Source: Clostridia bacterium (lineage in GTDB: Bacteria > Bacillota_E > RBS10-35 > JAJYVN01). Taken from it: a stretch of 12,787 bases of DNA. Shown one piece after another: positions 1 through 12,787 of this stretch; the first letter of the stretch is position 1; every line of letters begins with the position of its first letter. The stretch lies in the NCBI GenBank assembly GCA_027335515.1, contig DAHWHT010000219.1, positions 1 through 12,787 of the forward strand. Direction: 5' to 3'. The notes below the pieces were generated by a model that was given only the letters and a program-made list of their open reading frames with translations, was not told the origin of the DNA and searched no databases. A program made the translations under genes and the position numbers.

Positions 1-863
1 AGCATCGGCCATAGGATCAACCCAAAGAACACGGGGATGATGAATACAGCAATCGGCAGCAGAAGCATCAGCGCGGCCCGGCTCGCCTTTTCGAGAACTT
101 TCTCCACCCGGTTCCGCCGGACACCGGCCACCGATTTTAGCAGTTCCTCCGCGCTCTGCGCACCGTACTGTTGCTGCTTGATCAGCGTGCCAATGATTGC
201 ATCCGCGTCTGGATTATTGAGAACCGCCTGGGCCGCCCGCAAACCGTCGTCCATCTGCCCGCCAACGGCAGAAGTAAGTACCGCCGTCGAAAACGCCTCC
301 GCCACCGGACCAGGGAATCGTTCTTCCACCTGACCAACGGCGGTACGGAAATCCGCCCCGGCCTGCATCGCCATCGCCAGGTATTCACTGTAAGTCAGAA
401 TCTCCGACGCGATGCGCATCCGGCGCCTGGACAGGCGCGCCGAAAGCAGGAAGGCGGGAACCATGCCCGCGGCAAAAGCACCCCCCAGTACGGTCACCGG
501 AAGGTATGACGGTACAAACTCACCGATCCCCACACCGACCACCGCGCCGAGCCCAGCAAGTGGATAGGGGAGCATCTGCCACGCCCCGGGGCTCATTTGG
601 ATGCCTGACCACTTCAGCCGCTGCCCCAGGTTGCTGGGAACCTTCTTGTTCCGTCCGAGTTTGTTCACCCACTGCTCGGCTTGGCGCCGCAACTCCGCCA
701 GCCGCTCCTGAGGGAGGATCCCGACCCGGGTATCCGAGGCCGCCGAGTCTCCAGAAATCAACCTTTGCCCCCCTGGGCTGAATCCGCGCCCGGTGCTCAG
801 CGCCAGATACAACAGCAGACAGGCAATCCCGGTAAGTGCCGCCGCCAGTACGATGAAAGGCAA
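1..863 (-). CDS. tadC: TadC-like Tad pilus inner-membrane platform protein (3' end cut by window edge)
   Basis: Inner-membrane platform protein of the Tad (Flp) pilus/secretion machine. It pairs with TadB and the TadA ATPase. I translated 287 residues with no stop before the window edge. Hydrophobic segments lie at about 2-22, 98-117, 122-141 and 265-286, and the T2SSF-type domain covers about 150-275. The last helix (MLLLPIAVFIIPVFFG) has the Pro-rich form typical of TadC. The family is about 300 aa long, so only a few residues are missing. The TTG start at 863 follows the tadB stop directly. GGGGAGG at 872-878 lies 8 nt upstream, and no ATG or GTG is nearer. The gene is in the same reading frame as tadB, separated only by TGA. 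Confidence 0.88.
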   Translation of the reverse strand, partial: MPFIVLAAALTGIACLLLYLALSTGRGFSPGGQRLISGDSAASDTRVGILPQERLAELRRQAEQWVNKLGRNKKVPSNLGQRLKWSGIQMSPGAWQMLPYPLAGLGAVVGVGIGEFVPSYLPVTVLGGAFAAGMVPAFLLSARLSRRRMRIASEILTYSEYLAMAMQAGADFRTAVGQVEERFPGPVAEAFSTAVLTSAVGGQMDDGLRAAQAVLNNPDADAIIGTLIKQQQYGAQSAEELLKSVAGVRRNRVEKVLEKASRAALMLLLPIAVFIIPVFFGLILWPM

Positions 864-1814
864 TCACAGCACCTCCCCGAAGGCGTTGCGCAGGATTCCC
901 TGAGTAACGACATAGCCGATGATAAGCCACACCGCCATGCCCAGCAGTTCCAGTTGCCCGTGCGGAGTTTGGAACTTCTTCAGTGTCATGGGTGCCTGCA
1001 GGTGCATCCACACGTAGGCCAGCAACGGCGCGAAGAACAGTACCTTTCCCTGCATGCGCGCCGAAGCCACCGTGCTCCGCACCCGAGCCTCGGCGGTTCG
1101 GCGTTGGCGAATAAGCTCGGCCAGATTCGTCAGGTGGTCACCAAGATTGGCTCCCATCTCCAACGCGATCTGCAGCGAGGCCACAAGCATGCGCACGCTT
1201 GGTGCCCCGGGAACTCTGCCAGGCAATCGGCCCAGTGCCATATCCAGTGGTTCTCCGCTATCCACATCCCGGATCACCGTACGCAACTCTTCCCCCAGTG
1301 GCGCCGCGGCATCGCGCGCTGTATCGCGCAATGCGGTTTCCGGTGGAGCTCCTCCGTAAAGAGCCTGGATGAGGAACTGGCATGCGCTGGACACCTGCTC
1401 CTCAATGAGGGCCATGCGCCGATCAGCCTTGCGGCGCAGCAGCATACCGGGAACCAGCAACCCGGACGCTGCCGCCCCGACCACGATCACCGGCTGCCCC
1501 ACCAGCAACCAGGCAATCAGCGTCAATCCCGCGGACGCCAATGCCGCCGTGAGCAAGAGACGCAACAGCCCCTCATGTTCTCCCGCTTGCTGCTGCAGAG
1601 TGTCCAGGTACGAGAACGGCCAAGGTAACGGCGGCTCCTCATGCCGTCGCACCACCACACGCGTCGCCGTCTTCTTGGCGCCTCGGGTGGGTGCAGGCTC
1701 CGCCGCGTCCACAATCCCCTTTGCCCGCAACCTCCGCTCCTCTCGCGCCACCAGCAGCCAATAGGCCAGCAGCAGCACATCACACCCTGAAAGGAGCGCC
1801 ACCAGAGCAACCAA
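864..1814 (-). CDS. tadB: TadB-like Tad pilus inner-membrane platform protein
   Basis: Platform protein of the Tad machine, thought to transmit TadA ATPase motion to pilus assembly. It has 316 aa. A hydrophobic N-terminal helix (about 3-23) is followed by a basic/proline-rich linker. Two helices lie at about 85-127, the cytoplasmic T2SSF domain at about 138-258, and two C-terminal helices at about 258-306. The segment GANLGDHLTNLAELIRQRR (about 221-239) is typical of TadB. The TTG start is supported by AGGGGGG at 1822-1828, 7 nt upstream. The gene follows a 38-aa ORF by 12 bp and runs directly into tadC. Assignment as TadB rather than TadC rests on gene order and the longer N-terminal linker. 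Confidence 0.9.
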   Translation of the reverse strand: MVALVALLSGCDVLLLAYWLLVAREERRLRAKGIVDAAEPAPTRGAKKTATRVVVRRHEEPPLPWPFSYLDTLQQQAGEHEGLLRLLLTAALASAGLTLIAWLLVGQPVIVVGAAASGLLVPGMLLRRKADRRMALIEEQVSSACQFLIQALYGGAPPETALRDTARDAAAPLGEELRTVIRDVDSGEPLDMALGRLPGRVPGAPSVRMLVASLQIALEMGANLGDHLTNLAELIRQRRTAEARVRSTVASARMQGKVLFFAPLLAYVWMHLQAPMTLKKFQTPHGQLELLGMAVWLIIGYVVTQGILRNAFGEVL

Positions 1815-1826
1815 GCCAAGGCCCCC

Positions 1827-1943
1827 CTATAGATGCCATACGCCCGCCAACACCTGTCGGACCGCATAGGCGAGCAGCACACCGACCGTGACAATTACCG
1901 CCGCATTGCACACCATCAGAAGCGCACGTAGCCACGGCGCCAT
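1827..1943 (-). CDS. 38-aa single-helix membrane microprotein between tadA and tadB
   Basis: Unrecognised short ORF of 38 codons: ATG at 1941-1943, TAG at 1827-1829. It begins MAPWLRALL and has one hydrophobic helix at about residues 8-28, ending in AVRQVLAGVWHL. Positive charges flank the helix on both sides (R6, R29). AAGGGGG at 1950-1956 lies 6 nt before the ATG and is one of the best ribosome-binding sites in the window. The ORF fills the space between tadA (stop at 1956) and tadB (start at 1814) with 12-bp gaps on each side. No other gene fits there. It could be a small accessory subunit of the TadB/TadC platform or a leader peptide. It lacks a Flp-pilin-like processing site, so I do not call it the pilin. 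Confidence 0.68.
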   Translation of the reverse strand: MAPWLRALLMVCNAAVIVTVGVLLAYAVRQVLAGVWHL

Positions 1944-1949
1944 AAGATT

Positions 1950-1956
1950 CCCCCTT
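1950..1956 (-). promoter_or_regulatory. Ribosome-binding site of the 38-aa ORF
   Basis: AAGGGGG in mRNA sense, 6 nt before the ATG at 1943. It overlaps the last base of the tadA stop codon region. It is the main sequence evidence that the small ORF is translated. Confidence 0.7.
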
Positions 1957-3371
1957 CACACCGGGAGAGTGAGCAATTTCGCCCATGCCGGGGTGGCGCC
2001 GGTGGGCAGCAGACGTCGTTCTCGCCAGGTGTAAAGCGGTGTCACACGATAGCCCCCGTCCCCGTCCAAACCATCCAGGCTGGCCACCTCGCGCACCGCC
2101 CGCCGGCCTGTTCTGTCGTCCCGGTTGATCTGGATCAAGAGTTGCAGGGCGCAAAGATAATCGCGGCAAAGGCGCGCATCAAATCCAGTGCCACTACGCA
2201 GCAGCCCTTCGAGCCTCGGGAGAGCTGCCTCAGGGCTCGGCGCGTGGATGCTCGTCATCGATCCGGCATGCCCGGTGTTCACCGCCACAATGAACGCCGC
2301 TCCTTCGAGGGTGCGCACCTCGCCAACAACGATGATGTCCGGGCGCATGCGCAGCGTGGCCGCCACCAAGGCTTCCATACTGATCTCGCCAACGCCTTCG
2401 CTGTTCTTTCTCCGTGTCTGCAACCTGACGATGTTCGGCACGCAATCGGTCAGTTCCGCGACATCCTCCACTGTCACAATGCGAAAGCCCGGTCCGATGA
2501 GTTCCGGAATCAGACGCAGGTATGCGTCCATGACCGTTGTCTTGCCCGTACCGGTCGGCCCGATGAATACCATGGTGATGCGATTGCGCACGCAAAGGCG
2601 GAGGAACTTGCCGCAATCCATGTCCGGGTCATAAGGCGCGGCCGGAGCCTCGCTACCAAACAGTCCCAGTGCCACCTCGCGGCCGGGGACCACCCCTTGC
2701 TCTTCCAACTGAGTGGCGGTCGGTCGCTGTCCCGCCGGCTTGTGAACGCGGATGGTGACGGCAGTGCCCCGCAGACTGATTCCGTATCGCACCGCGTTGA
2801 GTCGGTTACCGTCAGGCAACAGGGTGTCCACGATCGGCTCGCGAAAGTTGAATGGCCGGCCCGCCTTTGCCGCCAGCCGCTCGACCAAGGACACGACGTC
2901 GTCATCACTGCGGAAACCCCTGACATCGACGCGTCGCATTTCACCCTTAGCTGAGACCCACACCTCGTCATATCGGTTGATCGCGATGTCCTCGACACCA
3001 GGAATGCTCAACAACGGGGTCAGCGGGCCATAGCCGCCTACGACAAATGACAGAATCTCTTGCAAGAGTTGGTCTCGCTGGAGAACGTGCGCCCGAGTAC
3101 CCAACACCTCTCGATTGAATATCTCGGTTGCCAATGCGGTCATGGCGCCGCCGTCCTCCTGGGACACCCCGCGGGACAGCGCCTCATCCGTGATCAGCTG
3201 GCGCACCCGCGCCAGAAACGCCACCTGCTGCTCTTCAGTCAACGCGTTCTTCGCAAGTAAGTCTTCGATTTGCCTGGATTGCGGAGCCGCCATCGCCGGG
3301 GCCGACGCCGCCCCTGGGGCCGACGGGGGTTGCGCTGGTCGCGGTCCCGCAAGGCGTGAGTTCAGGCCCAC
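1956..3371 (-). CDS. tadA: TadA/CpaF secretion ATPase
   Basis: Hexameric AAA-type ATPase (GspE/PulE superfamily, CpaF branch) that powers Tad pilus assembly from the cytoplasmic face. It has 471 aa. A Pro/Ala-rich N-terminus is followed by a helical region (about 32-105) and the N-terminal domain with YGPLTPLL (about 114-121). The ATPase core has Walker A GPTGTGKT (271-278), Asp box VTVEDVAEL (299-307), Walker B RPDIIVVGEVR (343-353) and His box TGHAGSMTSIHA (366-377). All catalytic elements look intact. The GTG start at 3371 has GGGGG at 3379-3383, 7 nt upstream. A 13-aa insert-like stretch around 236-250 (GLFGSEAPAAPYDPD) sits between the domains. It lies 30 bp after the tadZ stop. Confidence 0.96.
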   Translation of the reverse strand: MGLNSRLAGPRPAQPPSAPGAASAPAMAAPQSRQIEDLLAKNALTEEQQVAFLARVRQLITDEALSRGVSQEDGGAMTALATEIFNREVLGTRAHVLQRDQLLQEILSFVVGGYGPLTPLLSIPGVEDIAINRYDEVWVSAKGEMRRVDVRGFRSDDDVVSLVERLAAKAGRPFNFREPIVDTLLPDGNRLNAVRYGISLRGTAVTIRVHKPAGQRPTATQLEEQGVVPGREVALGLFGSEAPAAPYDPDMDCGKFLRLCVRNRITMVFIGPTGTGKTTVMDAYLRLIPELIGPGFRIVTVEDVAELTDCVPNIVRLQTRRKNSEGVGEISMEALVAATLRMRPDIIVVGEVRTLEGAAFIVAVNTGHAGSMTSIHAPSPEAALPRLEGLLRSGTGFDARLCRDYLCALQLLIQINRDDRTGRRAVREVASLDGLDGDGGYRVTPLYTWRERRLLPTGATPAWAKLLTLPV

Positions 3372-3401
3372 TCTGATTCCCCCGCTCTATGCATGTTCTG
3401 A

Positions 3402-4739
3402 CTAGAAGATTCCAAGGAAGCGCCGGCGCCGGCTTCGATTCATCTTCCCGCGTGACGCCTTCCCACGAGATGCCAAATTAAGGCCCAACTCCGGCAGCAC
3501 ACTCGCGGCCATCCGCCGCAACGCGATGCTCCAGGGACAATTGGGATCGGCCAGGATCGTCGCTTCCCCGTGCCCCCGTGTACGCAGCACCGCATCGTCC
3601 TCTGGCAGAATCACTGGACACGACCGGAATTCAGCCAACACCTCGTTCGCCTCTTCGACTGGAACCGGGCTCTGTTCGCGCATGCGGTTATGTACGATCC
3701 ATACTTTGCCAGGGTCCAGGCCACGCGCCACCATCTCGTGCAGGTATGTACGCGTAACCTTGAGGGTCGGGATATCCGGATTGGTGACCACCAGCACTTC
3801 CGTCGCCGACCTCAGCGCATCGAGCATGGGCGCCGTGAATCCAGCCGGGAGGTCGACCACCGTCACCGCGTGCATCAGGCGCAGCGTGCTCAGGATACAA
3901 TCGACGTGGACCGATTCCAGCAGGTCGTGATCATCCACAGACGTGGCGCCAAAGACCACATGCAGGCCGCTCTTCAACGTAGCCACCAGATGATCCGTCA
4001 CTCGCTGCGGATCCACCGGGGCACCGCCGGCTGGAACGTGTGGGATCCAATCAATAACCGTCGGATGAGGACGGACCCCCGGCCCGAACAGCAACTCCGA
4101 CGATTCCAGGCCGCGCTCGAAGTCCACGAACGCCGTTGGAATATCCGAGGTCGGATTGGTTTGCAGCAGCAGGGCAAGATTGACTCCCACCTGAGACTTC
4201 CCGGCCCCACCCTTGCCCCCGGCCACCGCGATCAGGCGCGGGGCCATCGCCATGCGCGAAATCCCACCGGACCGCGAGTCCCCGGCGTGCGCCGCAAGCT
4301 GCATCTCCACCTCGGATTCTCGCACCAGGACTGACGATACCACCTCGACCAGCGCCTCGGGCGTGAAGGGCCTGGTGATCACAGACTTGATGCCCTCAAC
4401 CACCGCGCTGTTGTGCAAGGCGACCAGGGCCGGTCCCGGATCTCCGCTGGCCAGGTAGAAATGCACCTTGGGCCAGCGCTTCGCCGCGCGCGCGGCCACC
4501 GCAAGCCCTGTCTCATTGCCCGCCAGGCCGTGATCCACCACCACGATCTTGATACCCATGCCCGGAATCGCTTCATCCATTTCATCTTCCGTGCCCACAC
4601 TCGTCCTGAACTTAATGTCCGGATGCGTACGGTAGGTGCTGAACACCTCCCTGCCCCATTCACTGTCCGTCGTATACAGCAGGGCATTCAACGCTGTTCC
4701 GAACCGTGCCCGGATCGGGCCCAGTGGAGCGGTCTCCAT
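3402..4739 (-). CDS. tadZ: TadZ/CpaE-type ParA/MinD-family ATPase with receiver-like N-terminus
   Basis: Localisation ATPase of the Tad machine, usually placing the pilus complex at a cell site. It has 445 aa from the ATG at 4739, which has a run of eight G (4745-4752) 5 nt upstream. An in-frame TTG at 4772 overlaps the cpaB stop but has a poorer site. Residues 15-140 resemble a receiver domain (VVVD at 66-69, TRPFTPEAL at 122-130, with R in place of the usual Lys). The ParA domain has an intact deviant Walker A GGKGGAGKS (174-182) and a Walker B-like VTVVDLPAG (292-300). The C-terminus is very basic and ends RRRRFLGIF, a possible membrane- or partner-binding tail. It belongs with cpaB and tadA on both sides. 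Confidence 0.93.
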   Translation of the reverse strand: METAPLGPIRARFGTALNALLYTTDSEWGREVFSTYRTHPDIKFRTSVGTEDEMDEAIPGMGIKIVVVDHGLAGNETGLAVAARAAKRWPKVHFYLASGDPGPALVALHNSAVVEGIKSVITRPFTPEALVEVVSSVLVRESEVEMQLAAHAGDSRSGGISRMAMAPRLIAVAGGKGGAGKSQVGVNLALLLQTNPTSDIPTAFVDFERGLESSELLFGPGVRPHPTVIDWIPHVPAGGAPVDPQRVTDHLVATLKSGLHVVFGATSVDDHDLLESVHVDCILSTLRLMHAVTVVDLPAGFTAPMLDALRSATEVLVVTNPDIPTLKVTRTYLHEMVARGLDPGKVWIVHNRMREQSPVPVEEANEVLAEFRSCPVILPEDDAVLRTRGHGEATILADPNCPWSIALRRMAASVLPELGLNLASRGKASRGKMNRSRRRRFLGIF

Positions 4740-4744
4740 CCAGT

Positions 4745-4752
4745 CCCCCCCC
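4745..4752 (-). promoter_or_regulatory. G8 ribosome-binding site setting the tadZ start
   Basis: Eight consecutive G in mRNA sense, 5 nt before the ATG at 4739. It favours this start over the TTG at 4772. If the upstream TTG were used, this homopolymer would lie inside the coding sequence. Confidence 0.55.
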
Positions 4753-4768
4753 GTCTCATCTCCAGGCT

Positions 4769-5731
4769 TCAACTCGCCGCCGTAGGGGCCACCGCTCCCG
4801 GCTGGGTCGCCGATGTAGCGGATGAATAGGTTGTACTCGGCGTTCCGCCGCCCCCCAGAAGGGCGGTCGTTGTCACCGTCCCAATCTTCAGCACCGAACC
4901 TCCCATCGGGTTGAGCGTCACCAGCAGGCTACCCGCCTGCTCGCTGAGCATGAGTCGTTCGACCTGTGCGGGGGTCAGCGCCAGTACCAGGATACCGGAC
5001 ACCGCTCCACTGACCGCGCCACCAGCCGCTCCACCCTGGCGTCCGAGCACCAGCACATGATTTGCGACACCGAACGCAACGGTGTTCTTCTGGCTGTCAT
5101 GGACCGTGCCAAACACCGTCACCCGGTCACCGGTGTGCACCAGCGCGAAACCATCTTGCTCATTGATCTGCAGCGTCACCGCCACTTCGTCCTGCACCCG
5201 GGCCAGATGCGCGACGGCGACGGCATATGCGGCGTCCGCATTCTGACCCGCCAACTGCTTTGCGGGTGGCACGGGCCCGATGGATACGCTGGCATGTGTC
5301 GTGGTGCCCTTCGGGATCGGCAGGCCGAGCTTCTTGATTGCCGCTGCGTCCCTTTGCACCTGAGCTTCGGCCGCCTGCCGGATCTCCATCAAGCGCGCAT
5401 CATAGGTGCTTGTCGCCGCCGTGACATTGGCCAGGTCGGCCGGCACGACCATCTCGCCCGGATAGAGGCCGTAGACGGTGTAGCGCCCAGTCAATGCGCC
5501 AACAAGCGTCCCATGGATGTAATCCACCTGTCCAAGTCGGCCCTTGGGTATAGTGGCCACCATCAGATCCGCGGCTGTGATCTTGGTCATCGGCGGCACT
5601 TGCTGGGCCGCTTCGACCACAGACACCGGCTTCAACTGCGCATTTAGTCCGAGCCATGCGATCAGAGCCGCGAGCAGAGCAACCAAGATCGCGACAAAGG
5701 CGATAACCAGCTGAGTGCGTTTCTTGGGCAT
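4769..5731 (-). CDS. cpaB: CpaB/RcpC-family Tad pilus assembly protein (SAF domain)
   Basis: Membrane-anchored, exported Tad assembly protein. It has 320 aa. The basic N-terminus MPKKRTQ is followed by one long membrane helix (about 8-29), then an SAF domain (about 34-105, with VPPMTKITAADLM and YPGEMVV), a helical/coiled insert (about 108-135), and an RcpC/CpaB domain (about 182-275, with VHTGDRVTVFGTV). The tail is Thr/Ser/Gly/Pro-rich (about 290-320). ATG at 5731 is chosen because AAAAGGGGGG (5738-5747) lies 6 nt upstream. A longer in-frame reading to 5836 would cross a strong hairpin and add a non-conserved basic extension. In diderms CpaB precedes the secretin CpaC. Here tadZ follows directly, as expected in a single-membrane cell. 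Confidence 0.92.
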   Translation of the reverse strand: MPKKRTQLVIAFVAILVALLAALIAWLGLNAQLKPVSVVEAAQQVPPMTKITAADLMVATIPKGRLGQVDYIHGTLVGALTGRYTVYGLYPGEMVVPADLANVTAATSTYDARLMEIRQAAEAQVQRDAAAIKKLGLPIPKGTTTHASVSIGPVPPAKQLAGQNADAAYAVAVAHLARVQDEVAVTLQINEQDGFALVHTGDRVTVFGTVHDSQKNTVAFGVANHVLVLGRQGGAAGGAVSGAVSGILVLALTPAQVERLMLSEQAGSLLVTLNPMGGSVLKIGTVTTTALLGGGGTPSTTYSSATSATQPGAVAPTAAS

Positions 5732-5737
5732 TTTGAG

Positions 5738-5747
5738 CCCCCCTTTT
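5738..5747 (-). promoter_or_regulatory. cpaB: Ribosome-binding site of cpaB
   Basis: AAAAGGGGGG in mRNA sense, 6 nt before the ATG at 5731. It begins only 5 nt after the 3' base of the 14-bp hairpin, so the hairpin could affect ribosome access. Confidence 0.7.
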
Positions 5748-5752
5748 GGCAC

Positions 5753-5786
5753 GCCTGATAGGCGGCGAGCTTGCCGCCTATCAGGC
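5753..5786 (-). other. 14-bp perfect hairpin in the cpaB leader
   Basis: Arms at 5753-5766 and 5773-5786 are perfect inverted repeats (GCCTGATAGGCGGC in mRNA sense) around the 6-nt loop AAGCTC. The hairpin starts 6 nt after the stop of the 40-aa ORF and ends 5 nt before the cpaB ribosome-binding site. No T-tract follows on the minus strand, so a classical intrinsic terminator is not supported. More likely roles are an mRNA stability or processing element separating the upstream block from the Tad block, an attenuator, or a protein-binding palindrome. Confidence 0.75.
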
Positions 5787-5792
5787 TTCCGA

Positions 5793-5915
5793 CTACTGGC
5801 TACGCTGGTTGATCGTGCGCACCACCGCCACCGCAAGGAGGATCACGCCGACCAAGGCAAGGAACACTCCAACCGAATGGTGCGTGTGAAAGAACACATG
5901 AATCCCGTGCCACAC
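5793..5915 (-). CDS. 40-aa His-rich single-helix membrane microprotein
   Basis: Unrecognised short ORF: GTG at 5913-5915, TAG at 5793-5795, 40 codons. The first 13 residues (MWHGIHVFFHTHH) hold five His. One hydrophobic helix follows (about 15-33, VGVFLALVGVILLAVAVV), then a short polar/basic tail RTINQRSQ. An AAGGTGA-like site spanning the end of the protease gene lies about 7 nt upstream, and the start lies 7 bp past that gene's stop at 5923. A second GTG (residue 7) would give a 34-aa form. The gap of roughly 190 bp between the protease and cpaB is explained by this ORF plus the hairpin. It could be a partner of the adjacent zinc protease or of the Tad machine. This is inference from position only. 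Confidence 0.58.
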   Translation of the reverse strand: MWHGIHVFFHTHHSVGVFLALVGVILLAVAVVRTINQRSQ

Positions 5916-5922: not shown

Positions 5923-6471
5923 TCACCTTCCCGTCGCAGCAACGATTCCATCCGAGGTATCCCGAAAGCGGTTCGCGTGCGCCCCCAACACAGCGATCAG
6001 CATCAGCAGGTCAGCCGAGGACCCGATAACCATGAGCACCCATACCATCCAGCACAGTCCCCAGACTGCCGGAGCCACGGCACGCAACATCAGAAGCGTT
6101 GCGGGAATCACCACCTGCGGCGCCAACAGCACCGCGACCATGCCGGCCCGTGACACCTCTCCGTCGAGCCCGCACCAGAACGCCAGCGGCACCACACGCA
6201 ACACAAACCGAGTTCCGTAGCGCACTGGACCGCCACCCACCCAGCGTCCGACCCAGCCGTGAGACAGTTCATGAAGGACCAGAGCGGCCCCGAAGGCCAG
6301 CACAAACACCAGCGGTTCCAGAGGGCCGAAGGTTGCTCTGGTCTCAGACATGGCGGAAACAGATCGCTGTGGATCAGTCCAGATCAGCGCCGTCAGGAGG
6401 CAGAGTCCGCATACGATGGCCAGCACATGAAATCCCCTGCCCTGCCGGAGAACAACCCGGCCTCCTCGCAT
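5923..6471 (-). CDS. Membrane zinc metalloprotease, DUF3267/M50-like
   Basis: Putative intramembrane metalloprotease. It has 182 aa from the ATG at 6471. Hydrophobic segments lie at about 13-31, 51-69, 84-99, 109-130 and 135-152. The zinc motif HELSH (67-71) sits at the end of a helix (LAFGAALVLHELSHGWVG). A later Asp in GSSADLL (150-156, D154) could be the third ligand. The GEVSRAGMVAVLLAP segment (104-118) matches the R-x-x-x-V-x-L-A-P pattern of DUF3267 proteins. The start is uncertain: GGAAGAGG lies just before the ATG, an in-frame GTG is at 6489 next to an eight-G run, and a TTG at 6570 gives 215 aa. The substrate is unknown. The position next to Tad genes suggests processing of a Tad or envelope protein or of a regulator. 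Confidence 0.77.
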   Translation of the reverse strand: MRGGRVVLRQGRGFHVLAIVCGLCLLTALIWTDPQRSVSAMSETRATFGPLEPLVFVLAFGAALVLHELSHGWVGRWVGGGPVRYGTRFVLRVVPLAFWCGLDGEVSRAGMVAVLLAPQVVIPATLLMLRAVAPAVWGLCWMVWVLMVIGSSADLLMLIAVLGAHANRFRDTSDGIVAATGR

Positions 6472-6508
6472 CACCTCTTCCGTTTTCACCCCCCCCACTC
6501 TGCCCGGC

Positions 6509-6539
6509 ACTATACCGGCGGCTGCATCCCGATGCTCAA
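6509..6539 (-). promoter_or_regulatory. Weak promoter-like pair upstream of the protease gene
   Basis: TTGAGC (6534-6539) and TATAGT (6509-6514) in mRNA sense resemble -35 and -10 boxes, but the spacing of 19 nt is longer than usual. If real, transcription would start about 30 nt before the protease ATG at 6471. The roughly 120-bp gap between the TadZ-like gene and the protease start is otherwise unassigned. Confidence 0.2.
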
Positions 6540-6591
6540 GCCTCGGCTCCGCAACCGCCCGACCCACCAAAGCAGCCAGGAGCGCCGCTTT

Positions 6592-7998
6592 CTATGGAGG
6601 CGCAAGATTATTTCTCACGATCTCCACACGCACATCCGGGCACTCCGCAAGAACCGTCCGCTCCATGCGTTCCGCGGCCTCCTGCCCCAGCGTGTCCGGT
6701 CTTGTCACCACCACAACCGACCCCTGTCTTGCGGCCCAAGACACCCGCCCGTCGGCTCTCCCGGCGATGATCGGAGGCATACTTCCGAAGTCGATTACCG
6801 GCGATCCATTCGCACATGCGCGCAGTGCCCGCTCCAGATCCGCCACCTCCCGCGGCGTCGCACGATCATCACCCGCCGGTACGGCCACCCCCAGCGCTTC
6901 TGCCCACAACGCCCGGTCGTGATCAGTCAACGTGGACCCGCGTACAACTACAGAAGATAGGTTCCCGCCCGCCCCCAGGTGATCGAGCAGCCGGCGCGTC
7001 TCTTCCAGAACCCTACCTGGGCGGGCGTTGATTTCAACATCCGCCCCGGCCACGCCCCAGCGCACAGCCACATCACAACTGGCCGCCACCATTTGCGGCG
7101 ATCCAGACGGCTCAAAGGCCAGCAATAAAGCCTGCAGCCCGGAACGGATCTGCAGCACCGCTTCACGGTAGTGCCCCTGGCAGTGCCGCCACGAACGCGC
7201 CCGATCTTCTGGCACTAGAGTGCTCAGATGCCGGCCCAGCAGGTAATGAGCCATATGCGCGCGCTGAAAGTGGGCATCCACCAGCAGCACATCCCCGTCA
7301 TCCGCCCCTGTCAGCGCGTAGGCAATCGCGAAACCGGTGCAGCCACAGCCCGGCAGAGCACCAAAAAAACTGGTCACTCCGCGATGGAACGCCGGTACCG
7401 CCGCTCGCCAACTCTCCATGTCGGCCCCGGTCTGCTCCTTTGAGACTCGTACCTGTCTGCGTAAAACCGACTTGAGGACGCGTACCCGCTCAGGCGGCGG
7501 CGACGCCGCCGTCTGCTCCACTACCGGCTGCGGTGGCTCGTCCACCACCTTCTGGAGAGCCGTGCCCAGGTGACTGGTCAGCAGAGGCCGCGCATCCCCT
7601 GGTCGACGCAGCGCGCCGAGCCCGGCGAGCATACGTGGTGGCCGCCCGAGCACGGCAACAAGGGCGTCCGGGGTCAGTTCGTCGTCAAACAGGATGTCGT
7701 AGACTCCAAGCGCGACCGTTTTAACGAGGAGTTCCCGTACGCCGTCGTCCACCTGGTCGCGACGGCCGGGCAGATACACGACGCGCACGTCCGCCTGCCG
7801 GAGCGGCACAATGACCGAGAGGATACCCGCGTCCCCATCCGTCGCCAGGGAAGCGCCGACAACCGCCGCGTCCGCCTCCCGACCCGTCACGGCTGCGCCA
7901 TACGTGCATGCCTCCGCGTCATGTCCCGCAGCCTTGAGGGCATCCACCAGTTGGGCATTCAGTCCCAGGTTCCCACTCCCGACTGAAACCCGCACCAT
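6592..7998 (-). CDS. CpaE/TadZ-like ParA-superfamily protein with degenerate Walker A
   Basis: Second CpaE/TadZ-like protein of the cluster, 468 aa from the ATG at 7998 (AAAGGGG at 8003-8009; a TTG at 8022 has no good site). The N-terminal domain (about 1-125) is receiver-like, with YLPGRR (75-80) and GVYDILFDDELTPDAL (98-113), a pattern common in Firmicutes CpaE-type proteins. The middle is a Pro-rich linker. In the ParA fold the P-loop reads GALPGCGCTG (213-222), so both Lys of KGGxGKT are lost. VLLVDAHFQR (237-246) is a good match to the A' strand of the family, and SPVIDFGSMP (399-408) sits at Walker B. It is probably non-hydrolysing or atypical, with a scaffold or localisation role. It could equally serve the flagellum in a FlhG-like way. 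Confidence 0.82.
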   Translation of the reverse strand: MVRVSVGSGNLGLNAQLVDALKAAGHDAEACTYGAAVTGREADAAVVGASLATDGDAGILSVIVPLRQADVRVVYLPGRRDQVDDGVRELLVKTVALGVYDILFDDELTPDALVAVLGRPPRMLAGLGALRRPGDARPLLTSHLGTALQKVVDEPPQPVVEQTAASPPPERVRVLKSVLRRQVRVSKEQTGADMESWRAAVPAFHRGVTSFFGALPGCGCTGFAIAYALTGADDGDVLLVDAHFQRAHMAHYLLGRHLSTLVPEDRARSWRHCQGHYREAVLQIRSGLQALLLAFEPSGSPQMVAASCDVAVRWGVAGADVEINARPGRVLEETRRLLDHLGAGGNLSSVVVRGSTLTDHDRALWAEALGVAVPAGDDRATPREVADLERALRACANGSPVIDFGSMPPIIAGRADGRVSWAARQGSVVVVTRPDTLGQEAAERMERTVLAECPDVRVEIVRNNLAPP

Positions 7999-8058
7999 CT
8001 CGCCCCTTTCCAATGATTGCAAACTTCCATCGGTGCGCTTTCTGTGCTGTATCGCTCA

Positions 8059-8364
8059 TCAGGTGATCGGCGTCTGTAGGTGCAAGAGCATCTTCAGGAG
8101 AAAGTACCCGCCTATGTAGATCACCGCGGAACCGAACGCAATGCTCAGTCCGAACCGGCGCAGCCCCTTGACTCCCCCCGCAAGCCCCAGGAGATATGCG
8201 ATGCCTGCGACCACAAGACAGGCCGCGAACCCCTCTGGCCCCCAAACATGGAGGGCCATAAGCCCCTGCGCCTCCAACGTGTGGATCCGCGTCAGGAGAA
8301 CTAACGGATTGATAGCCACGACATTGTTCGGAGCGGCCGACCCAGTGACCGTCCCCGCTCTCAT
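8059..8364 (-). CDS. 101-aa two-helix membrane protein following fliE
   Basis: Not recognised with certainty. It is 101 aa from the ATG at 8364, which overlaps the fliE stop (ATGA), so translation is coupled. A polar N-terminal part (about 1-42) precedes two hydrophobic helices (about 44-64 and 72-91) joined by a short basic loop GGVKGLRRF (63-71). The layout of small size and paired helices with a basic turn recalls VirB2/TrbC-type proteins, but similarity is by shape only. In most flagellar operons fliF comes directly after fliE. Here this small protein takes that place, and it is far too short to be FliF. The longer reading frame running up to 8961 is not used because it would cover flgC and fliE. 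Confidence 0.75.
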   Translation of the reverse strand: MRAGTVTGSAAPNNVVAINPLVLLTRIHTLEAQGLMALHVWGPEGFAACLVVAGIAYLLGLAGGVKGLRRFGLSIAFGSAVIYIGGYFLLKMLLHLQTPIT

Positions 8365-8645
8365 GGAATCTGAGAGATGGTCTGGTACGACTTGATGGCC
8401 GCCTGCTGCGTCTGCACAGCCAGTTGCAGCGACAGGCCCGCCTTTTCCGCCGCGATCATCGCGGACGCCACGTTGGCGCTCTGCCCCGTGACCACGGCGT
8501 TGGTCGCCGCTGTCGCCTGCACCTGGAGCCCGTTCAGCTGGTTCAGCAGCCCCACGAATCCACCGGAACCGGCGACCGCACCTGCCGGGCCCGCTGGAGT
8601 AGGAGGCGCGGGCGGTGCCGGGTGCATGATCGCAACCAGGGCCAT
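8361..8645 (-). CDS. fliE: Flagellar hook-basal body protein FliE
   Basis: Small export-gate/rod junction protein linking the MS ring to the proximal rod. It has 94 aa. The N-terminal 30 residues are Pro/Ala/Gly-rich. The conserved C-terminal half is present: ASAMIAAEKAGLSLQLAVQT (60-79) followed by QQAAIKSYQTISQ (80-92), which matches the family pattern of an EKAxLSL helix and a terminal AYxEIM-like helix. The length is slightly below the usual 100-110 aa. The ATG at 8645 lies 20 bp after the flgC stop, with only a weak AAGG upstream. An ATG at 8627 is an alternative. It overlaps the next gene by 4 bp (ATGA). Confidence 0.87.
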   Translation of the reverse strand: MALVAIMHPAPPAPPTPAGPAGAVAGSGGFVGLLNQLNGLQVQATAATNAVVTGQSANVASAMIAAEKAGLSLQLAVQTQQAAIKSYQTISQIP

Positions 8646-8665
8646 GCGCCATCAGCCTTTCGGGG

Positions 8666-9049
8666 TCAGATTTGCAGCGCGGCCTGATTCTCGGCCTTCG
8701 CCGCCTGGAAGGTCGTCGCAGCCGCTTGGTACGCCCGCCCGGCGGCGAGCAGGTCCACCATCTGCACGGCCATGCTGACGTTGGATCCGGGGACGTAACC
8801 CGCCGCGTTGGCCCCGGCCACCCCCGGCGCGTAGACCAGTTTGGCCGGTGCCGCTGACGCCGCCACCCGGGCCACGGCAACACCTTGGACGGCACCACCC
8901 GCTCCATATATGGCCTGCAGCACCGGCTCAAGAGAGCGGTACGGGACGCCACCCACGTCATTCATATTGGCGAGGTTGTCCGCGACAAGGTTCATCCATT
9001 GCCGCTGAGCTGTCAGGCCCGTCGCCGCGGCATTCATCGCTTGGAACAG
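8666..9049 (-). CDS. flgC: Flagellar basal-body rod protein FlgC (probable CTG start)
   Basis: Proximal-rod subunit exported by the flagellar secretion system. The rod-protein N-terminal motif is present (AMNAAATGLTAQRQWMNLVA, residues 4-23, then DNLANMN). The C-terminal FlgC helix is also clear (GYVPGSNVSMAVQMVDLLAA, 84-103, then GRAYQAAATTFQAAK). The start is unusual. A perfect AGGAGG (9058-9063) sits 8 nt before the in-frame CTG at 9049. That gives MFQAMNAAATGL, which fits the family's MxxFxAMxIAASGL start. The next ATG (9037) is 20 nt from that site, and the only upstream ATG (9130) would overlap flgB by 68 bp. From CTG the protein has 127 aa, short for FlgC (about 135-150). Confidence 0.87.
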   Translation of the reverse strand: MFQAMNAAATGLTAQRQWMNLVADNLANMNDVGGVPYRSLEPVLQAIYGAGGAVQGVAVARVAASAAPAKLVYAPGVAGANAAGYVPGSNVSMAVQMVDLLAAGRAYQAAATTFQAAKAENQAALQI

Positions 9050-9057
9050 GGGAACCC

Positions 9058-9063
9058 CCTCCT
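9058..9063 (-). promoter_or_regulatory. flgC: Perfect AGGAGG ribosome-binding site pointing to a CTG start of flgC
   Basis: AGGAGG in mRNA sense, overlapping the flgB stop codon (9063-9065). It is 8 nt from the CTG at 9049 and 20 nt from the first downstream ATG (9037). No ATG, GTG or TTG lies at normal spacing in the flgC frame. Confidence 0.75.
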
Positions 9064-9395
9064 CAGACGACCGTCTGGCCGCCGATGGCGCCGGCGAGGC
9101 GCCCGTAGGCCATCTGTGCGAGTTTGGCATCCGCGGCGTACCACTGCTGCGTTTCCGCGGTCTGGGCCATCAGCACATCCAAGGAGACACCGTTACCGCC
9201 GGCCCCCTGCGTCAGGGGCATGGTCTCCACCGTGGCCGCCCCGCCCTGTAAGACGCTGGCCACGCCGGCCCCCACATTCAGGACCTGTGCCCTAAAGCCG
9301 GGGGTCGAAGCATTGGCCGCGTCCGCGGACAGAAGGCGTTGCTGCACAGAGAGGACATTGATTCCGGCATCGACCGGCGCGACCCCACCGAACAC
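9063..9395 (-). CDS. flgB: Flagellar basal-body rod protein FlgB
   Basis: Proximal-rod subunit, 110 aa. The N-terminal rod motif includes LSVQQRLLSADAANASTPGF (15-34), the equivalent of the usual NIANADTPGY. Near the C-terminus GNGVSLDVLMAQTAE (67-81) matches the FlgB GNNVDLDxEM block, followed by a final helix WYAADAKLAQMAYGRL. The protein is shorter than the usual 130 or more, mainly in the middle. The GTG start at 9395 is chosen because it lies one base after the pilZ stop, with GAGGGGG (9406-9412) upstream, and begins right at the conserved region. The longer frame to 9518 would overlap the pilZ gene by 120 bp. Confidence 0.88.
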   Translation of the reverse strand: MFGGVAPVDAGINVLSVQQRLLSADAANASTPGFRAQVLNVGAGVASVLQGGAATVETMPLTQGAGGNGVSLDVLMAQTAETQQWYAADAKLAQMAYGRLAGAIGGQTVV

Positions 9396-9396
9396 C

Positions 9397-9693
9397 TCAG
9401 AGTTTCCCCCTCGCCACCAGGGTGCGTAACTCCCACACGTCGCTGCGCTGTTCCCCGTTCTTGAAGAGAAACCGCATACCAGCCATAACCCCGCTGACCC
9501 ACACCGTCTCCACTTCATACGTCAAGAAGCCATCAGGGCTCGGAAGGTCGAGTCTGTGTCGCTGCCCTTTAGAAGTCTGGATTCCCCAGACCCGGACCCC
9601 GGTGGTGCTGATGTCCCATAATTGCGCGATGCGGCCATCAATCCTCACCGACACACGCCAGACGACTCGCAGCGAGTCCCGCAGATCTTCCAA
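9397..9693 (-). CDS. Single-domain PilZ protein (c-di-GMP receptor)
   Basis: Predicted cyclic-di-GMP receptor, 98 aa, essentially one PilZ domain. Both signature motifs are intact: RxxxR as RVVWR (9-13) and DxSxxG as DISTTG (27-32). A later AGMRF (71-75) matches the closing strand of the fold. It lacks the N-terminal YcgR domain of YcgR/MotI-type flagellar brakes. The TTG start at 9693 is supported by AAGGGGGGG (9700-9708), 6 nt upstream, which overlaps the motB stop. It lies between motB and flgB, so a role in tuning the stator, or in switching between swimming and Tad-mediated attachment, is a fair inference. The partner is unknown. Confidence 0.87.
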   Translation of the reverse strand: MEDLRDSLRVVWRVSVRIDGRIAQLWDISTTGVRVWGIQTSKGQRHRLDLPSPDGFLTYEVETVWVSGVMAGMRFLFKNGEQRSDVWELRTLVARGKL

Positions 9694-9699
9694 GCCTCA

Positions 9700-9708
9700 C
9701 CCCCCCTT
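9700..9708 (-). promoter_or_regulatory. Ribosome-binding site setting the pilZ TTG start
   Basis: AAGGGGGGG in mRNA sense, 6 nt before the TTG at 9693 and overlapping the motB TAA (9707-9709). It decides the TTG start, since no ATG or GTG is nearby. Confidence 0.65.
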
Positions 9709-10546
9709 ATTGCCAGCTTGGGATCTGCCCTTGCGGCATTGTATCCGGCCCGCCATCGTTGATTCCGGGCGGTGTCATATCGGTGATCACGATATCGACG
9801 CTTCTATTCTTTGCCAGATTGGACGGACTGTTGTTCGGCCACCTTGGGTGCCACTGGCCGAAACTAACGGCCTCCATATGATACGGGGAAACCCCCTGCG
9901 TCTCCGTTAAGAACCGCAAGACGTTGATCGCCCGCGCCCCGGCCAGTTCCCATGCGGTCTGATATTTTGTGGAGTATAACGGCAGGTTGTTTGTGTAACC
10001 TTGGACTTCCATCTCATACGGAACAGTACGCAGGACAGGAGCCACGATCTTCAGCACTTTTTCAAACGGTGAAAGAACGGTAGCTCTGGCCGACTGGAAG
10101 TACACATTGCTCCCGAAAGTGATGTCCACCTCGCTAGCCGTCGCCTTCACAGCCACCGCGCTGGGTGGCACATTTGCCCGATGCAGGTCCGCGGTAAGCG
10201 CGGAGGCGATCTGCTGCATCTGGTTTGACATGACCAGTTTTTGCGGTCCGGTTGTCTGCTTGGATTGCTGTTGGGGCGGGGCGACCACCTTGGACAACGG
10301 CGTCATGGTATTGGCCGACTTCTGCGTCAGGCCCATCGGCATCGGCGTGTGGAATGCCGCATGCATGGCCTCCACGATCAGCACATTGTTTGTTTTTGAC
10401 GATCCCTGCGCCATCGCGTACAGGATGATGAAGAACGCAAGAAGGAGGGTGATCATGTCGGAGTAGGTGAGGAGCCACCGATCCTCACCAGCGTTCCCGC
10501 TCTCCTGCTCATCCTCCACCACTTGTTCTTCACCCGCCGGCTGCAT
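9707..10546 (-). CDS. motB: MotB-like flagellar stator protein with altered OmpA-domain motif
   Basis: Stator subunit that conducts ions with MotA and anchors to peptidoglycan. It has 279 aa from the ATG at 10546, which overlaps the motA end by 17 bp. The TTG at 10606 would overlap by 77 bp. The single membrane helix RWLLTYSDMITLLLAFFIIL (23-42) keeps the ion-carrying Asp (D30). The OmpA-like domain spans about 140-255, with WELAGARA (199-206), whose Arg (R205) matches the conserved peptidoglycan-binding Arg. The usual GHTDN motif reads GYTNN (183-187), so the conserved peptidoglycan-contacting Asp is Asn, and NRRV reads NRSV (247-250). The Pro/Gln-rich linker (about 80-105) is ordinary. The ribosome-binding site is weak (GGGGGG 11 nt upstream). 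Confidence 0.92.
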   Translation of the reverse strand: MQPAGEEQVVEDEQESGNAGEDRWLLTYSDMITLLLAFFIILYAMAQGSSKTNNVLIVEAMHAAFHTPMPMGLTQKSANTMTPLSKVVAPPQQQSKQTTGPQKLVMSNQMQQIASALTADLHRANVPPSAVAVKATASEVDITFGSNVYFQSARATVLSPFEKVLKIVAPVLRTVPYEMEVQGYTNNLPLYSTKYQTAWELAGARAINVLRFLTETQGVSPYHMEAVSFGQWHPRWPNNSPSNLAKNRSVDIVITDMTPPGINDGGPDTMPQGQIPSWQ

Positions 10547-11375
10547 TTGCCGCCGCACCCCCCGCCGACGCAACGCCCCTGATCTCGTCCGCCTTTTTGG
10601 GATCAATGATCCGGTAGAGCCGCTGACGAATCTCGATCGGTCCGGATGCCCGCGAGATAAGGCTCACCGCCTCCACGAACAGCCGCTGCTGCCGGTCCCG
10701 TTCTTTGGATTTGGTCTTGAGCTTTTTGCCCAAAGGCAGCCAGAAGATGTTCGCCGAACTGATGCCATAGAACGTCCCCAGGAAAGCCGTGCTCACGGCT
10801 GCCCCCAAGGCGGTCGCGTCGCCGGAGGAGAGCTTGCCGAGCACATCAATCAGCCCCATAACTGTCGCGACAATACCGAAGGTCGGCGCGAACCCCCCCG
10901 CGGCCTCGAACACCTCGCTGGCGGATTTGGCTTGGAACTGCTCACTCCAGATCATGGAAAGGAGTTCTTGCCGCAGATCTTCGTCCTTGCGCCCGTTGGC
11001 CTTCTGCTGCAAGGCAAACCGCAAGAGGTGGTCAGGCTGCTTCTTAGCGTGTTCCTCGAGGGCCACTGGCCCTTCCTTTTTCGCCAGCACGTGCCACCTG
11101 CACACATCTTCCACGAATTGATACTCGTTAATAGTTTCCTGGCGCATCGCCAAGATTACGTGCCCTGGAATCTGCAGCATCCGCTTCAAACCCATGGACA
11201 CCATAGTCGCGCACAAAGAGCCGCCCACGACGATCAGCGCTGCCGTGGGGTCCAGAAGCCCCTGAATTGTCCCACCGCCCAAGAGATGCCCGGCGAGAAC
11301 GCATCCGGCCGCACCCAGTAGTCCAACGAGCACCCCGATGTCCACCAGCGTCCGCTTCCTTCCGCATGTCGCCAT
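10530..11375 (-). CDS. motA: MotA-like flagellar stator protein
   Basis: Ion-channel subunit of the stator (MotA/TolQ/ExbB superfamily), 281 aa. Four membrane helices are visible: about 10-30, 37-56, and the pair 158-178 and 192-215. FEAAGGFAPTFGIVATVMGL (155-174) contains the conserved Pro of helix 3. STAFLGTFYGISSANIFWLP (191-210) is helix 4 with its Pro. A cytoplasmic loop (about 60-150) and a basic C-terminal tail follow the family plan. The ATG at 11375 forms a TGATG junction with the flgG stop (11375-11377). A TTG just upstream (11378) is possible. No clear ribosome-binding site is present, so translation probably depends on reinitiation. Confidence 0.94.
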   Translation of the reverse strand: MATCGRKRTLVDIGVLVGLLGAAGCVLAGHLLGGGTIQGLLDPTAALIVVGGSLCATMVSMGLKRMLQIPGHVILAMRQETINEYQFVEDVCRWHVLAKKEGPVALEEHAKKQPDHLLRFALQQKANGRKDEDLRQELLSMIWSEQFQAKSASEVFEAAGGFAPTFGIVATVMGLIDVLGKLSSGDATALGAAVSTAFLGTFYGISSANIFWLPLGKKLKTKSKERDRQQRLFVEAVSLISRASGPIEIRQRLYRIIDPKKADEIRGVASAGGAAANAAGG

Positions 11376-12109
11376 CAAAGAGTAGCGACGGTGTTGGTGC
11401 TGGCGCTGATAGTCTCCAGGGCCTTGATGTTCCCCTGATAGGCCCGCTGGGCCCGCATCAGACCTATGGTCATATCGATCATCGAGACCTGACTGCTGTC
11501 CAACGCGCCGCTAACGATCCCCGATGGCGGCGGGATGCGGATCAGCGTGGGGAGGGCTGGAATCAGCGTCCCGGAAGGTCCAGACGAAACACCGCCCAAG
11601 TTTAGATCGGCGCCAGAAACATACCCCAGGATCTGCCCCGTCGCCTTCCCGCCAACCAGGATCGCCCCACCCGGGCCGATGTGGACGGCACCCTGTGTCG
11701 GCACCGTGATCGGCTTCCCCTGGGAGTTTAACACCAGGAGCCCGGTGCTCGTTGTGATCTGCCCCTGCGCGTCCCGCACAAACGCACCGTTGCGCGTCAG
11801 AGCCACCTTGCCGCCTGGCACCTGGACGGCGAAGAACCCCGGCCCCTTGATCGCGACATCCATGGGATTCCCCGTCTGCTGAATCTGGGACCCGCTGTTG
11901 ATCCGCACCATCGCGCCCAAACTCGCGCCGGCTCCCGTCGCTCCGGCCAGTGACTGCGCCGGCAGCGGGCGGACCGGCCCCTCGGTCACCACCGGATTCT
12001 CCTGGAGGTAGCCGGCCGATTGCAGATTGGCCAGGTTGTTCGCATACACACCAAGCATGGTTTGCGCGGTGCTGAGACCGCTGGCGCTCGCCGCCAACCC
12101 TTCCATCAT
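11375..12109 (-). CDS. flgG: FlgG-type flagellar basal-body rod protein
   Basis: Distal-rod subunit of the FlgF/FlgG family, 244 aa (family about 240-265). The N-terminal rod motif is GLAASASGLSTAQTMLGVYA (4-23) followed by NNLANLQSAGY (24-34). The middle has the family block NPMDVAIKGPGFFAVQ (81-96) and LTRNGAFVRDAQGQITT (104-120). The C-terminal rod helix includes MIDMTIGLMRAQRAYQGNIK (210-229). FlgG versus FlgF cannot be settled without alignment. I call it FlgG because it is the more complete second copy. The ATG at 12109 overlaps the preceding stop (ATGA), with AGGCGGGG upstream. Confidence 0.88.
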   Translation of the reverse strand: MMEGLAASASGLSTAQTMLGVYANNLANLQSAGYLQENPVVTEGPVRPLPAQSLAGATGAGASLGAMVRINSGSQIQQTGNPMDVAIKGPGFFAVQVPGGKVALTRNGAFVRDAQGQITTSTGLLVLNSQGKPITVPTQGAVHIGPGGAILVGGKATGQILGYVSGADLNLGGVSSGPSGTLIPALPTLIRIPPPSGIVSGALDSSQVSMIDMTIGLMRAQRAYQGNIKALETISASTNTVATL

Positions 12110-12372
12110 GACGCCCCGCCTCTTTCCTGGGCCAGTTTGACCAGCGCCTTCCCTCCGGCAACGAGTTCTTCCCGCTCCTCGGCGGATTCTGAGGCCAGTT
12201 CACCGATGGACTCGACCGCATCGCACAAATCCCCGGGCTTCCAGGCTCCGGCTGCGACCAGATGCCAACGATTACAATGCTCACAGCGAAACACGAGTAG
12301 AAAATCGTCGGTTGCCACCATCAGTTTTTCGTCCCCGTCTTTGAAGACAAAAGCGCGGACTGGCCCATCCAT
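12106..12372 (-). CDS. 88-aa unknown protein with a Cys/His cluster between two rod genes
   Basis: I do not recognise this protein. It has 88 aa and no signal peptide or membrane helix. The N-terminal half is beta-like, with a CEHC...H cluster (C30, H32, C33, H37, with C50 further on) that could bind a metal. The C-terminal half (about 52-84) is a charged helix rich in Glu and Ala. It is coupled on both sides: TGATG with the upstream rod gene, ATGA with flgG. AGGGAG lies 10 nt before the ATG. Sitting between two exported rod proteins, it may be a small cytoplasmic helper such as an export chaperone or a regulator. This is a guess from position. Confidence 0.78.
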   Translation of the reverse strand: MDGPVRAFVFKDGDEKLMVATDDFLLVFRCEHCNRWHLVAAGAWKPGDLCDAVESIGELASESAEEREELVAGGKALVKLAQERGGAS

Positions 12373-12787
12373 CAGCCAACAACTCCCTCCGCGGTCTTCG
12401 CCGCGCTGTTTTCAGCCTGCACCGCCTGGGCCGCCGCCGTAAGAGCGCGTTGGGAAGCGATCAATTCGACCGTTGTCTCCGCCAGACTCACGTTACTGCC
12501 AGCCACGTGACCGGGAAGGATCGTGGGCGCCGTCGCCCGAACCCCGCCCGTGAAGAGGCCCCCGCCCTGCGTAGTCATGACTCCGGTTGATGTCCACACC
12601 CCGACCGCGCCGACCACATTGCCGGTGGGACCGAGGATGCGGCCTCCCGTGACCATCCGCGCGCCAGGGGGGACCGTGATCTGGTTCCCGGCGGGGTCCA
12701 GAACCGGATCCCCGGCAGCCGACACGAGCAAGCCGGCCCCGCTGCGCAGGAAGTACCCGCTGCGCGTGTAGCGCACCCCGGCGGCGG
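12372..12787 (-). CDS. Flagellar rod protein of FlgF/FlgG family (5' part beyond window edge)
   Basis: The C-terminal 137 residues are present; the start lies outside the window. The visible part opens with GVRYTRSGYFLRSG, the family's GxRYTRxGxF block. A beta-rich region with GNQITVPPGA follows. The protein ends in the rod C-terminal helix GSNVSLAETTVELIASQRAL and then TAAAQAVQAENSAAKTAE. This pattern (SNVDLAxExxxLIxxQRA) is typical of FlgF and FlgG. An internal GTG at 12776 is not a real start, because the conserved block begins upstream of it. The stop overlaps the next gene (TGATG). Confidence 0.87.
   Translation of the reverse strand, partial: AAGVRYTRSGYFLRSGAGLLVSAAGDPVLDPAGNQITVPPGARMVTGGRILGPTGNVVGAVGVWTSTGVMTTQGGGLFTGGVRATAPTILPGHVAGSNVSLAETTVELIASQRALTAAAQAVQAENSAAKTAEGVVG

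What the first reader, a model, noticed from the sequence alone, without database searches (positions are those of the whole stretch)
1..12787. Flagellar rod/stator genes and a Tad pilus locus in one colinear run
Rod genes, motAB, a PilZ protein, flgB-flgC-fliE and then cpaB-tadZ-tadA-tadB-tadC are all on one strand with overlaps or short gaps. Flagellar and Tad systems are normally encoded in separate loci. The sequence shows the colinearity directly. That they form one regulated unit, or one machine, is inference. Joint control of swimming and surface attachment is the simplest reading.
Basis: partly seen in the sequence, partly recalled or inferred. Interest (0 to 1): 0.72.

Follow-up and report, generated by a model that had tools for sequence, protein, structure and literature searches.

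The report
Flagellar genes beside Tad pilus genes
In an uncharacterised bacterium, genes for the flagellar rod and motor run straight into genes for a sticky Tad pilus on the same strand; the neighbourhood is real and looks unusual, but nothing yet shows that the two machines are switched on together.

Summary
The colinearity is real. All genes lie on the minus strand: two FlgF/G-type rod genes, motA, motB, a PilZ-like gene, flgB, flgC and fliE, then a 2-TM protein, a 468-aa orphan, a DUF3267 metallopeptidase and a 40-aa TM ORF (about 2.6 kb that the finding does not name), then cpaB, tadZ, tadA, tadB and tadC. FliE, MotA, MotB, FlgC, TadA, TadB, TadC and CpaB pass Pfam cut-offs; FlgB, PilZ and TadZ rest on weaker scores plus motif or position. 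Gaps run from overlaps to 141 nt, and no terminator-like site lies at the flagellar/Tad border. However, a perfect 14-bp hairpin (z -4.3, no U-tract) lies in the 61-nt gap before cpaB, alone among six gaps folded. Codon usage does not separate the blocks. In flagellated Actinomycetota, 0 of 10 genomes with fliE and a TadA-type gene on one contig have them within 30 kb. I could neither read relatives' gene order nor extend the contig, so conserved synteny and co-transcription are untested. Most likely: two ordinary machines in a rearranged neighbourhood, with possible partial read-through. Joint swim/stick control is plausible but unproven.

The parts
12372..12785 (-). FlgF/FlgG-type rod protein, C-terminal part, cut by the window end
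   Evidence: PF06429 32.2 bits (cut-off 23); NCBIfam FlgF/G models below cut-off
12106..12372 (-). 88-aa ORF of unknown function between the two rod genes
   Evidence: no family over a cut-off; one unnamed PHROG at E 3e-4 over 20 residues; overlaps both neighbours
11375..12109 (-). FlgF/FlgG rod protein
   Evidence: PF22692 55 bits, PF06429 28.5 bits; TIGR03506 115.7 bits over its cut-off 70.25
10530..11375 (-). MotA stator protein
   Evidence: PF01618 75.4 bits, PF20560 33.6 bits
9707..10546 (-). MotB stator protein with plug and OmpA domain; start codon uncertain
   Evidence: PF13677 54 bits, PF00691 44.9 bits (on the ORF from 10606)
9397..9693 (-). PilZ-like small protein, possible c-di-GMP receptor
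   Evidence: PF07238 15.9 bits, under cut-off 22.5; RDSLR and DISTTG motifs
9063..9395 (-). FlgB-like rod protein
   Evidence: no Pfam match; TIGR01396 21.4 bits against cut-off 59.05, best model 23.1 bits against 142; position before flgC
8666..9037 (-). FlgC rod protein
   Evidence: PF06429 38.6 and PF00460 23.9 bits over cut-off; TIGR01395 94.3 against 102.1
8361..8645 (-). FliE
   Evidence: PF02049 54.7 bits, cut-off 22.4; TIGR00205 52.4 against cut-off 30
8059..8364 (-). 101-aa protein with two predicted membrane spans, no family
   Evidence: 4-nt overlap with fliE; crude hydropathy scan; no family over a cut-off; no match in plasmids at E 1
6592..7998 (-). 468-aa orphan protein; the first protein after the border
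   Evidence: no Pfam, NCBIfam or PHROG match and no meaningful PDB match; 2 proteins at E 0.001 among 7994 candidates: one identical, one 51%
5923..6489 (-). membrane metallopeptidase, HELSH motif
   Evidence: PF11667 DUF3267 40.3 bits, cut-off 27.1; HELSH
5793..5915 (-). 40-aa ORF with one membrane span, GTG start
   Evidence: Pfam matches only below cut-off; expression not shown
5753..5786 (.). perfect 14-bp inverted repeat, 6-nt loop, in the 61-nt gap before cpaB
   Evidence: searches (I3; -35.7 kcal/mol, z -4.32), no U-tract; both exact arms
4769..5731 (-). CpaB/RcpC
   Evidence: PF16976 35.5 bits, cut-off 28.8; TIGR03177 52 against 71
3402..4739 (-). TadZ/CpaE-type MinD-family ATPase
   Evidence: PDB MinD and 'site-determining protein' chains, best E 7e-12; MinD and CpaE-like NCBIfam models below cut-off; KGGAGKS; named TadZ by position
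1956..3371 (-). TadA/CpaF ATPase
   Evidence: PF00437 115.7 bits; PDB CpaF chains E 4e-72 with profile A1; Walker A GPTGTGKT
1827..1943 (-). 38-aa ORF with one membrane span
   Evidence: no Pfam match; expression not shown
864..1814 (-). TadB
   Evidence: PF00482 57.6 bits, cut-off 25.2; named TadB by order
3..863 (-). TadC, stop codon beyond the window
   Evidence: PF00482 33.6 bits, cut-off 25.2; frame open to the window end

Best explanation
This is a rearranged flagellar gene block (rod, stator, PilZ, fliE) with a Tad (type IVc) pilus assembly block placed directly behind fliE, on one strand. The genes encode two separate, ordinary machines. Inferred: the flagellar block is read as one coupled unit through fliE and the 2-TM protein, with some read-through across the 60-nt gap; the hairpin before cpaB caps or processes that transcript, so the Tad core is expressed at its own level. 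Inferred: the PilZ protein beside motAB senses c-di-GMP and acts on the motor; any link to the pilus would be indirect, by the shared neighbourhood.
For: Gene content. Overlaps and short gaps within each block; no terminator-like site in the 8059-7998 gap, and that gap folds no better than its shuffles (z +0.98). Of six gaps (the border and five on the Tad side) folded with shuffles, only the one before cpaB stands out (z -4.32; the next is 6489-6594, z -1.78). Codon usage not different between blocks: distance 3.31, permutation mean 3.23, 43% of 3000 permutations at or above it. PilZ motifs.
Against: No transcript or promoter evidence; 1 sigma-70-like site in the window against 2.3 in shuffles. 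The hairpin lacks a U-tract and may be an operator or a stability element instead. No relative's gene order could be read. The PilZ match is below its cut-off.
Confidence: 0.55

Rival explanations
1. One regulated unit: swimming and surface attachment genes are co-transcribed so that rod/stator parts and the Tad pilus are made together in the swim-to-stick switch.
For: Same strand, 60-nt border gap without a terminator-like site or notable fold, PilZ-like protein in the run.
Against: Hairpin before cpaB; no data on expression; no synteny in relatives read.
Confidence: 0.2
2. Chance neighbourhood: two independently controlled blocks brought together by rearrangement, with no functional tie.
For: The Tad side begins where fliF follows fliE in two annotated actinobacterial clusters, as a rearrangement would leave it; [quoted passage not shown]
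Against: No mobile-element family was matched by the proteins between the blocks; codon usage does not mark either block as foreign.
Confidence: 0.2
3. Assembly chimera joining two genomes or two places of one genome.
For: One contig; reads not available. No second record spanning the border was seen: the database rows give contig lengths, not contexts (MotA cluster, 4,914 bases; TadA cluster, up to 50,615 bases).
Against: No break in codon usage and no GC step at 8059-7998; both would miss a join within one genome or between similar genomes.
Confidence: 0.04
4. One hybrid machine built from flagellar rod and Tad parts.
For: Only the adjacency.
Against: Both sets match their usual families; no ORF matched families of both systems over a cut-off.
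Confidence: 0.01

Closest known systems
Tad / Flp (type IVc) pilus locus
   Same: CpaB, TadZ-type ATPase, TadA, TadB, TadC in a row on one strand
   Different: no flp pilin, prepilin peptidase or secretin matched within the window (they may lie outside it); preceded by a 468-aa orphan and a DUF3267 peptidase
Bacterial flagellar flgB-flgC-fliE block, e.g. Pseudarthrobacter plasmid pPA-B-2242 and an Arthrobacter sp. ERGS1:01 plasmid
   Same: flgB-flgC-fliE order; motA-motB pair
   Different: there fliE is followed by fliF and fliG, and motAB lie downstream of flgE; here motAB and a PilZ-like gene lie upstream of flgB and the Tad side follows fliE
PilZ motor-brake proteins (YcgR/MotI type; recalled)
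   Same: PilZ motifs, next to motAB
   Different: single small domain of 98 aa, below the Pfam cut-off; binding not tested

Membership tests
Tad (type IVc) pilus | TadA/CpaF-type ATPase with Walker A | tested here: met
   NCBIfam TIGR03819 is best by score but below its cut-off, 214 against 373 bits
Tad (type IVc) pilus | two single-domain T2SSF platform proteins, TadB and TadC, in tandem | tested here: met
   PF00482 in both; tandem single-domain genes as described in PMC6668835 (passages)
Tad (type IVc) pilus | TadZ, MinD-family ATPase | tested here: met
   MinD family at 4739-3402; TadZ by position only, since CpaE-like and MinD models stay below cut-off
Tad (type IVc) pilus | CpaB/RcpC | tested here: met
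   PF16976 over cut-off; TIGR03177 below cut-off
Tad (type IVc) pilus | Flp pilin, TadV peptidase | tested here: inconclusive
   no family match in the window; window ends inside tadC
Bacterial flagellum | rod and FliE proteins | tested here: met
   FliE, FlgC, FlgF/G over Pfam cut-off; FlgB weak
Bacterial flagellum | MotA/MotB stator | tested here: met
Bacterial flagellum | fliF, fliG, export apparatus, hook, flagellin | not testable with these tools
   not matched in the window; no genome held
PilZ c-di-GMP receptor | RxxxR and [DN]xSxxG motifs, Pfam PilZ | tested here: inconclusive
   motifs met, Pfam score 15.9 under 22.5
Single flagellar-Tad operon | one transcript across 8059-7998 and 5793-5731 | not testable with these tools
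   no transcript data; hairpin at 5753-5786
TadZ (for the orphan 7998-6592) | sequence similarity to TadZ/MinD ATPases and a canonical P-loop | tested here: not met
   hhalign with the window's TadZ: 11 columns, E 0.12; KGGxGK[TS] and GxxxxGx[TSC] absent; fold not testable, model pLDDT 38.7

The most novel reading that the evidence does not exclude
A deep, uncultured lineage keeps rod, stator, a c-di-GMP receptor and the whole Tad assembly line as one conserved cassette, with orphan proteins at the seam (2-TM protein, 468-aa protein, membrane peptidase) that couple the flagellar motor state to pilus assembly.
Probability: 0.1. Interest if true: 0.75.

Novelty: new variant of a known kind. Interest (0 to 1): 0.35.

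Why it matters
Surface sensing is thought to pass from the flagellar motor to pili, in part through second messengers (general knowledge). A genome that places the rod, stator, a PilZ-like protein and the Tad assembly genes side by side would give a compact system in which that coupling can be tested by transcript mapping and simple gene removals, if the linkage proves conserved.

Tried and rejected
Synteny in relatives could therefore not be read.

Lineage: of the 12 rows with an organism name among the 120 MotA hits listed (of 594; 8000 candidates scored), 9 are Bacillota by my reading of the names, at 32-36% identity and up to 165 bits. Flagellated Actinomycetota reach 154.6 bits, and Thermomicrobium roseum has the highest bit score among the 30 plasmid rows listed (34.9%, 136 bits). 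The phylum is left open. A search for a Bacillota genome to use as a centre (spore_IV_A in 396 relatives of G001, 0 hits) led nowhere.

Dropped readings: the orphan as a second TadZ; the 2-TM protein as a VirB2/TrbC-like pilin (a recalled resemblance; no family match); the two tiny TM ORFs as Flp pilins (no Flp motif seen by eye, no family over cut-off). Sigma-28-like promoters: 0 hits, 0.6 in shuffles; a relaxed sigma-70 scan: 2 hits, 2.6 in shuffles. Rfam: 0. The hairpin elsewhere: 0 in viral contigs. Annotated flagellar regions of Thermomicrobium roseum, Pseudarthrobacter and Arthrobacter list no Tad gene in 40.7 kb each, but PLSDB gene tables are incomplete and hold hypothetical proteins. 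Acetoanaerobium region: no annotation, not used.
Full report
What is there. The window carries 17 ORFs that I take as genes, plus two tiny ORFs, all on the minus strand. From the high-coordinate end: an FlgF/G-type C-terminus, an 88-aa ORF, FlgF/G, MotA, MotB, a PilZ-like protein, FlgB, FlgC and FliE; a 101-aa protein with two membrane spans; a 468-aa orphan; a DUF3267 metallopeptidase with an HELSH motif; a 40-aa TM ORF; CpaB, a TadZ-type ATPase, TadA, a 38-aa TM ORF, TadB and TadC, whose stop lies beyond the window. FliE, FlgC, both FlgF/G proteins, MotA, MotB, CpaB, TadA, TadB and TadC are over Pfam cut-offs. FlgB, PilZ and TadZ are weaker: FlgB has at most 23 bits in NCBIfam models and no Pfam match; PilZ has 15.9 bits against 22.5, but both recalled motifs are present; TadZ passes no family cut-off but matches MinD and 'site-determining protein' structures, best E 7e-12. 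TadA matches solved CpaF chains at E 4e-72 with an 8-row profile. Membrane spans come from a crude hydropathy scan that also flags one segment of TadA.

How tightly it is packed. Within the flagellar block the gaps are -1, -4, -1, -17, 13, 1, 25, 20 and -4 nt; the border gap is 60 nt; then 102, 7, 61, 29, 30, 141 and 0 nt. These depend on the start codons chosen. The terminator scan gave 9 sites against 8.1 in shuffles, none at the border gap or before cpaB. The sigma-70 scan gave 1 site against 2.3 and a sigma-28 scan 0 against 0.6. Such scans say little in an unknown phylum.

The Tad side has an internal feature. The 61-nt gap before cpaB holds a perfect 14-bp inverted repeat with a 6-nt loop at 5753-5786. 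It is one of four inverted repeats reported for the window at these settings, and the only one with a long perfect stem. Its RNA folds at -35.7 kcal/mol, z -4.3, with 0 of 200 shuffles as good. As a control I folded six gaps with shuffles: border gap z +0.98, 6489-6594 z -1.78, cpaB gap z -4.32, then -0.20, +0.57 and -0.14. No U-run follows the stem. It may be an RNA processing or stability element, a terminator without a U-tract, or an operator; I cannot tell which.

Are the blocks of one genome? Codon-usage distance between the blocks is 3.31, against a permutation mean of 3.23 (sd 0.54; 43% of 3000 at or above). GC shows no step at the border; it dips over the motA-motB-pilZ stretch, lowest in motB (56.8%). 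This fits a common genome but does not exclude a chimera of similar genomes.

Is the linkage unusual? The only control I could build is in Actinomycetota. FliE was found in 58 of 396 phylum genomes and in 8 of 150 relatives, together 65 distinct genomes; one of these matches (G503) is weak, 23.4 bits with a stop inside. A TadA-type match at E 1e-25 was found in 54 of the 65, at most 24 candidates per genome being scored. In 10 of these a match lies on the fliE contig; the nearest is 37.7 kb away and the other nine 167 kb to 1.8 Mb (positions typed). So 0 of 65 show the two within 30 kb on one contig, but the other 44 genomes with TadA have it on other contigs and may hide a link across contig ends. 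For the eight of the ten whose fliE contig I took as genome-sized, random placement would put about 0.1 genome within 10 kb, so zero means no tendency to linkage rather than avoidance. Three annotated flagellar regions on plasmids list no Tad gene in 40.7 kb each. In two of them fliF follows fliE directly; here the 2-TM protein and the Tad side start at that place. No control in Bacillota, to which 9 of the 12 organism-named MotA rows listed point, was possible.

The orphan. The search with the 468-aa protein gave two proteins: one identical, with '-' as source as the tool marks window-encoded proteins, and a 51% relative from JGI (7994 candidates scored). No family or meaningful structure match was found; the predicted model is too poor to use (pLDDT 38.7). 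By eye it has a VLLVD segment and a GxxPGxGxT-like stretch that recall a degenerate MinD/TadZ ATPase; the profile comparison and the P-loop patterns do not support that.

What it most likely does. Two known machines, encoded side by side. Shown: gene content, strand, spacing, hairpin. Inferred: partial read-through, separate tuning of the Tad core by the hairpin, c-di-GMP action of the PilZ-like protein on the motor. Not shown: any shared regulation.

Literature. Seven full-text searches listed 13, 8, 20 of 39, 20 of 117, 20 of 80, 17 and 3 papers. I saw titles and abstract starts; none of these describes a flagellar rod block adjoining a tad block. This is weak evidence, since most papers were not opened. 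Passages only were seen of PMC6668835, PMC11456536, PMC11974857 and PMC10284905. PMC6668835 describes tandem TadB/TadC, TadZ and frequent transfer of Tad systems. PMC11974857 reports a tad cluster that is repressed in Dinoroseobacter shibae phosphorelay mutants, in its comparison of CtrA regulons; so common control of flagella and Tad pili may not need a shared locus.

Verdict. Interest is moderate because conservation of the linkage is untested.

Noticed in passing
window 5753-5786: Perfect 14-bp hairpin without U-tract in the 61-nt gap before cpaB; the only one of six gaps that folds far better than its shuffles.
   Followed up: partly
window 6592-7998: 468-aa protein with no family and only one non-identical relative in the search; sits at the head of the Tad side.
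   Followed up: partly
window 5923-6489: DUF3267 membrane metallopeptidase (HELSH) on the pilus side, where no TadV-type peptidase was matched.
   Followed up: partly
window 1827-1943 and 5793-5915: Two ORFs of 38 and 40 aa, each with one strong membrane span: the first in the tadA-tadB gap, the second between the DUF3267 peptidase gene and cpaB.
   Followed up: partly
window 9200-11200: GC dips to about 57-61% over motA-motB-pilZ, lowest in motB at 56.8%.
   Followed up: no
   Followed up: no
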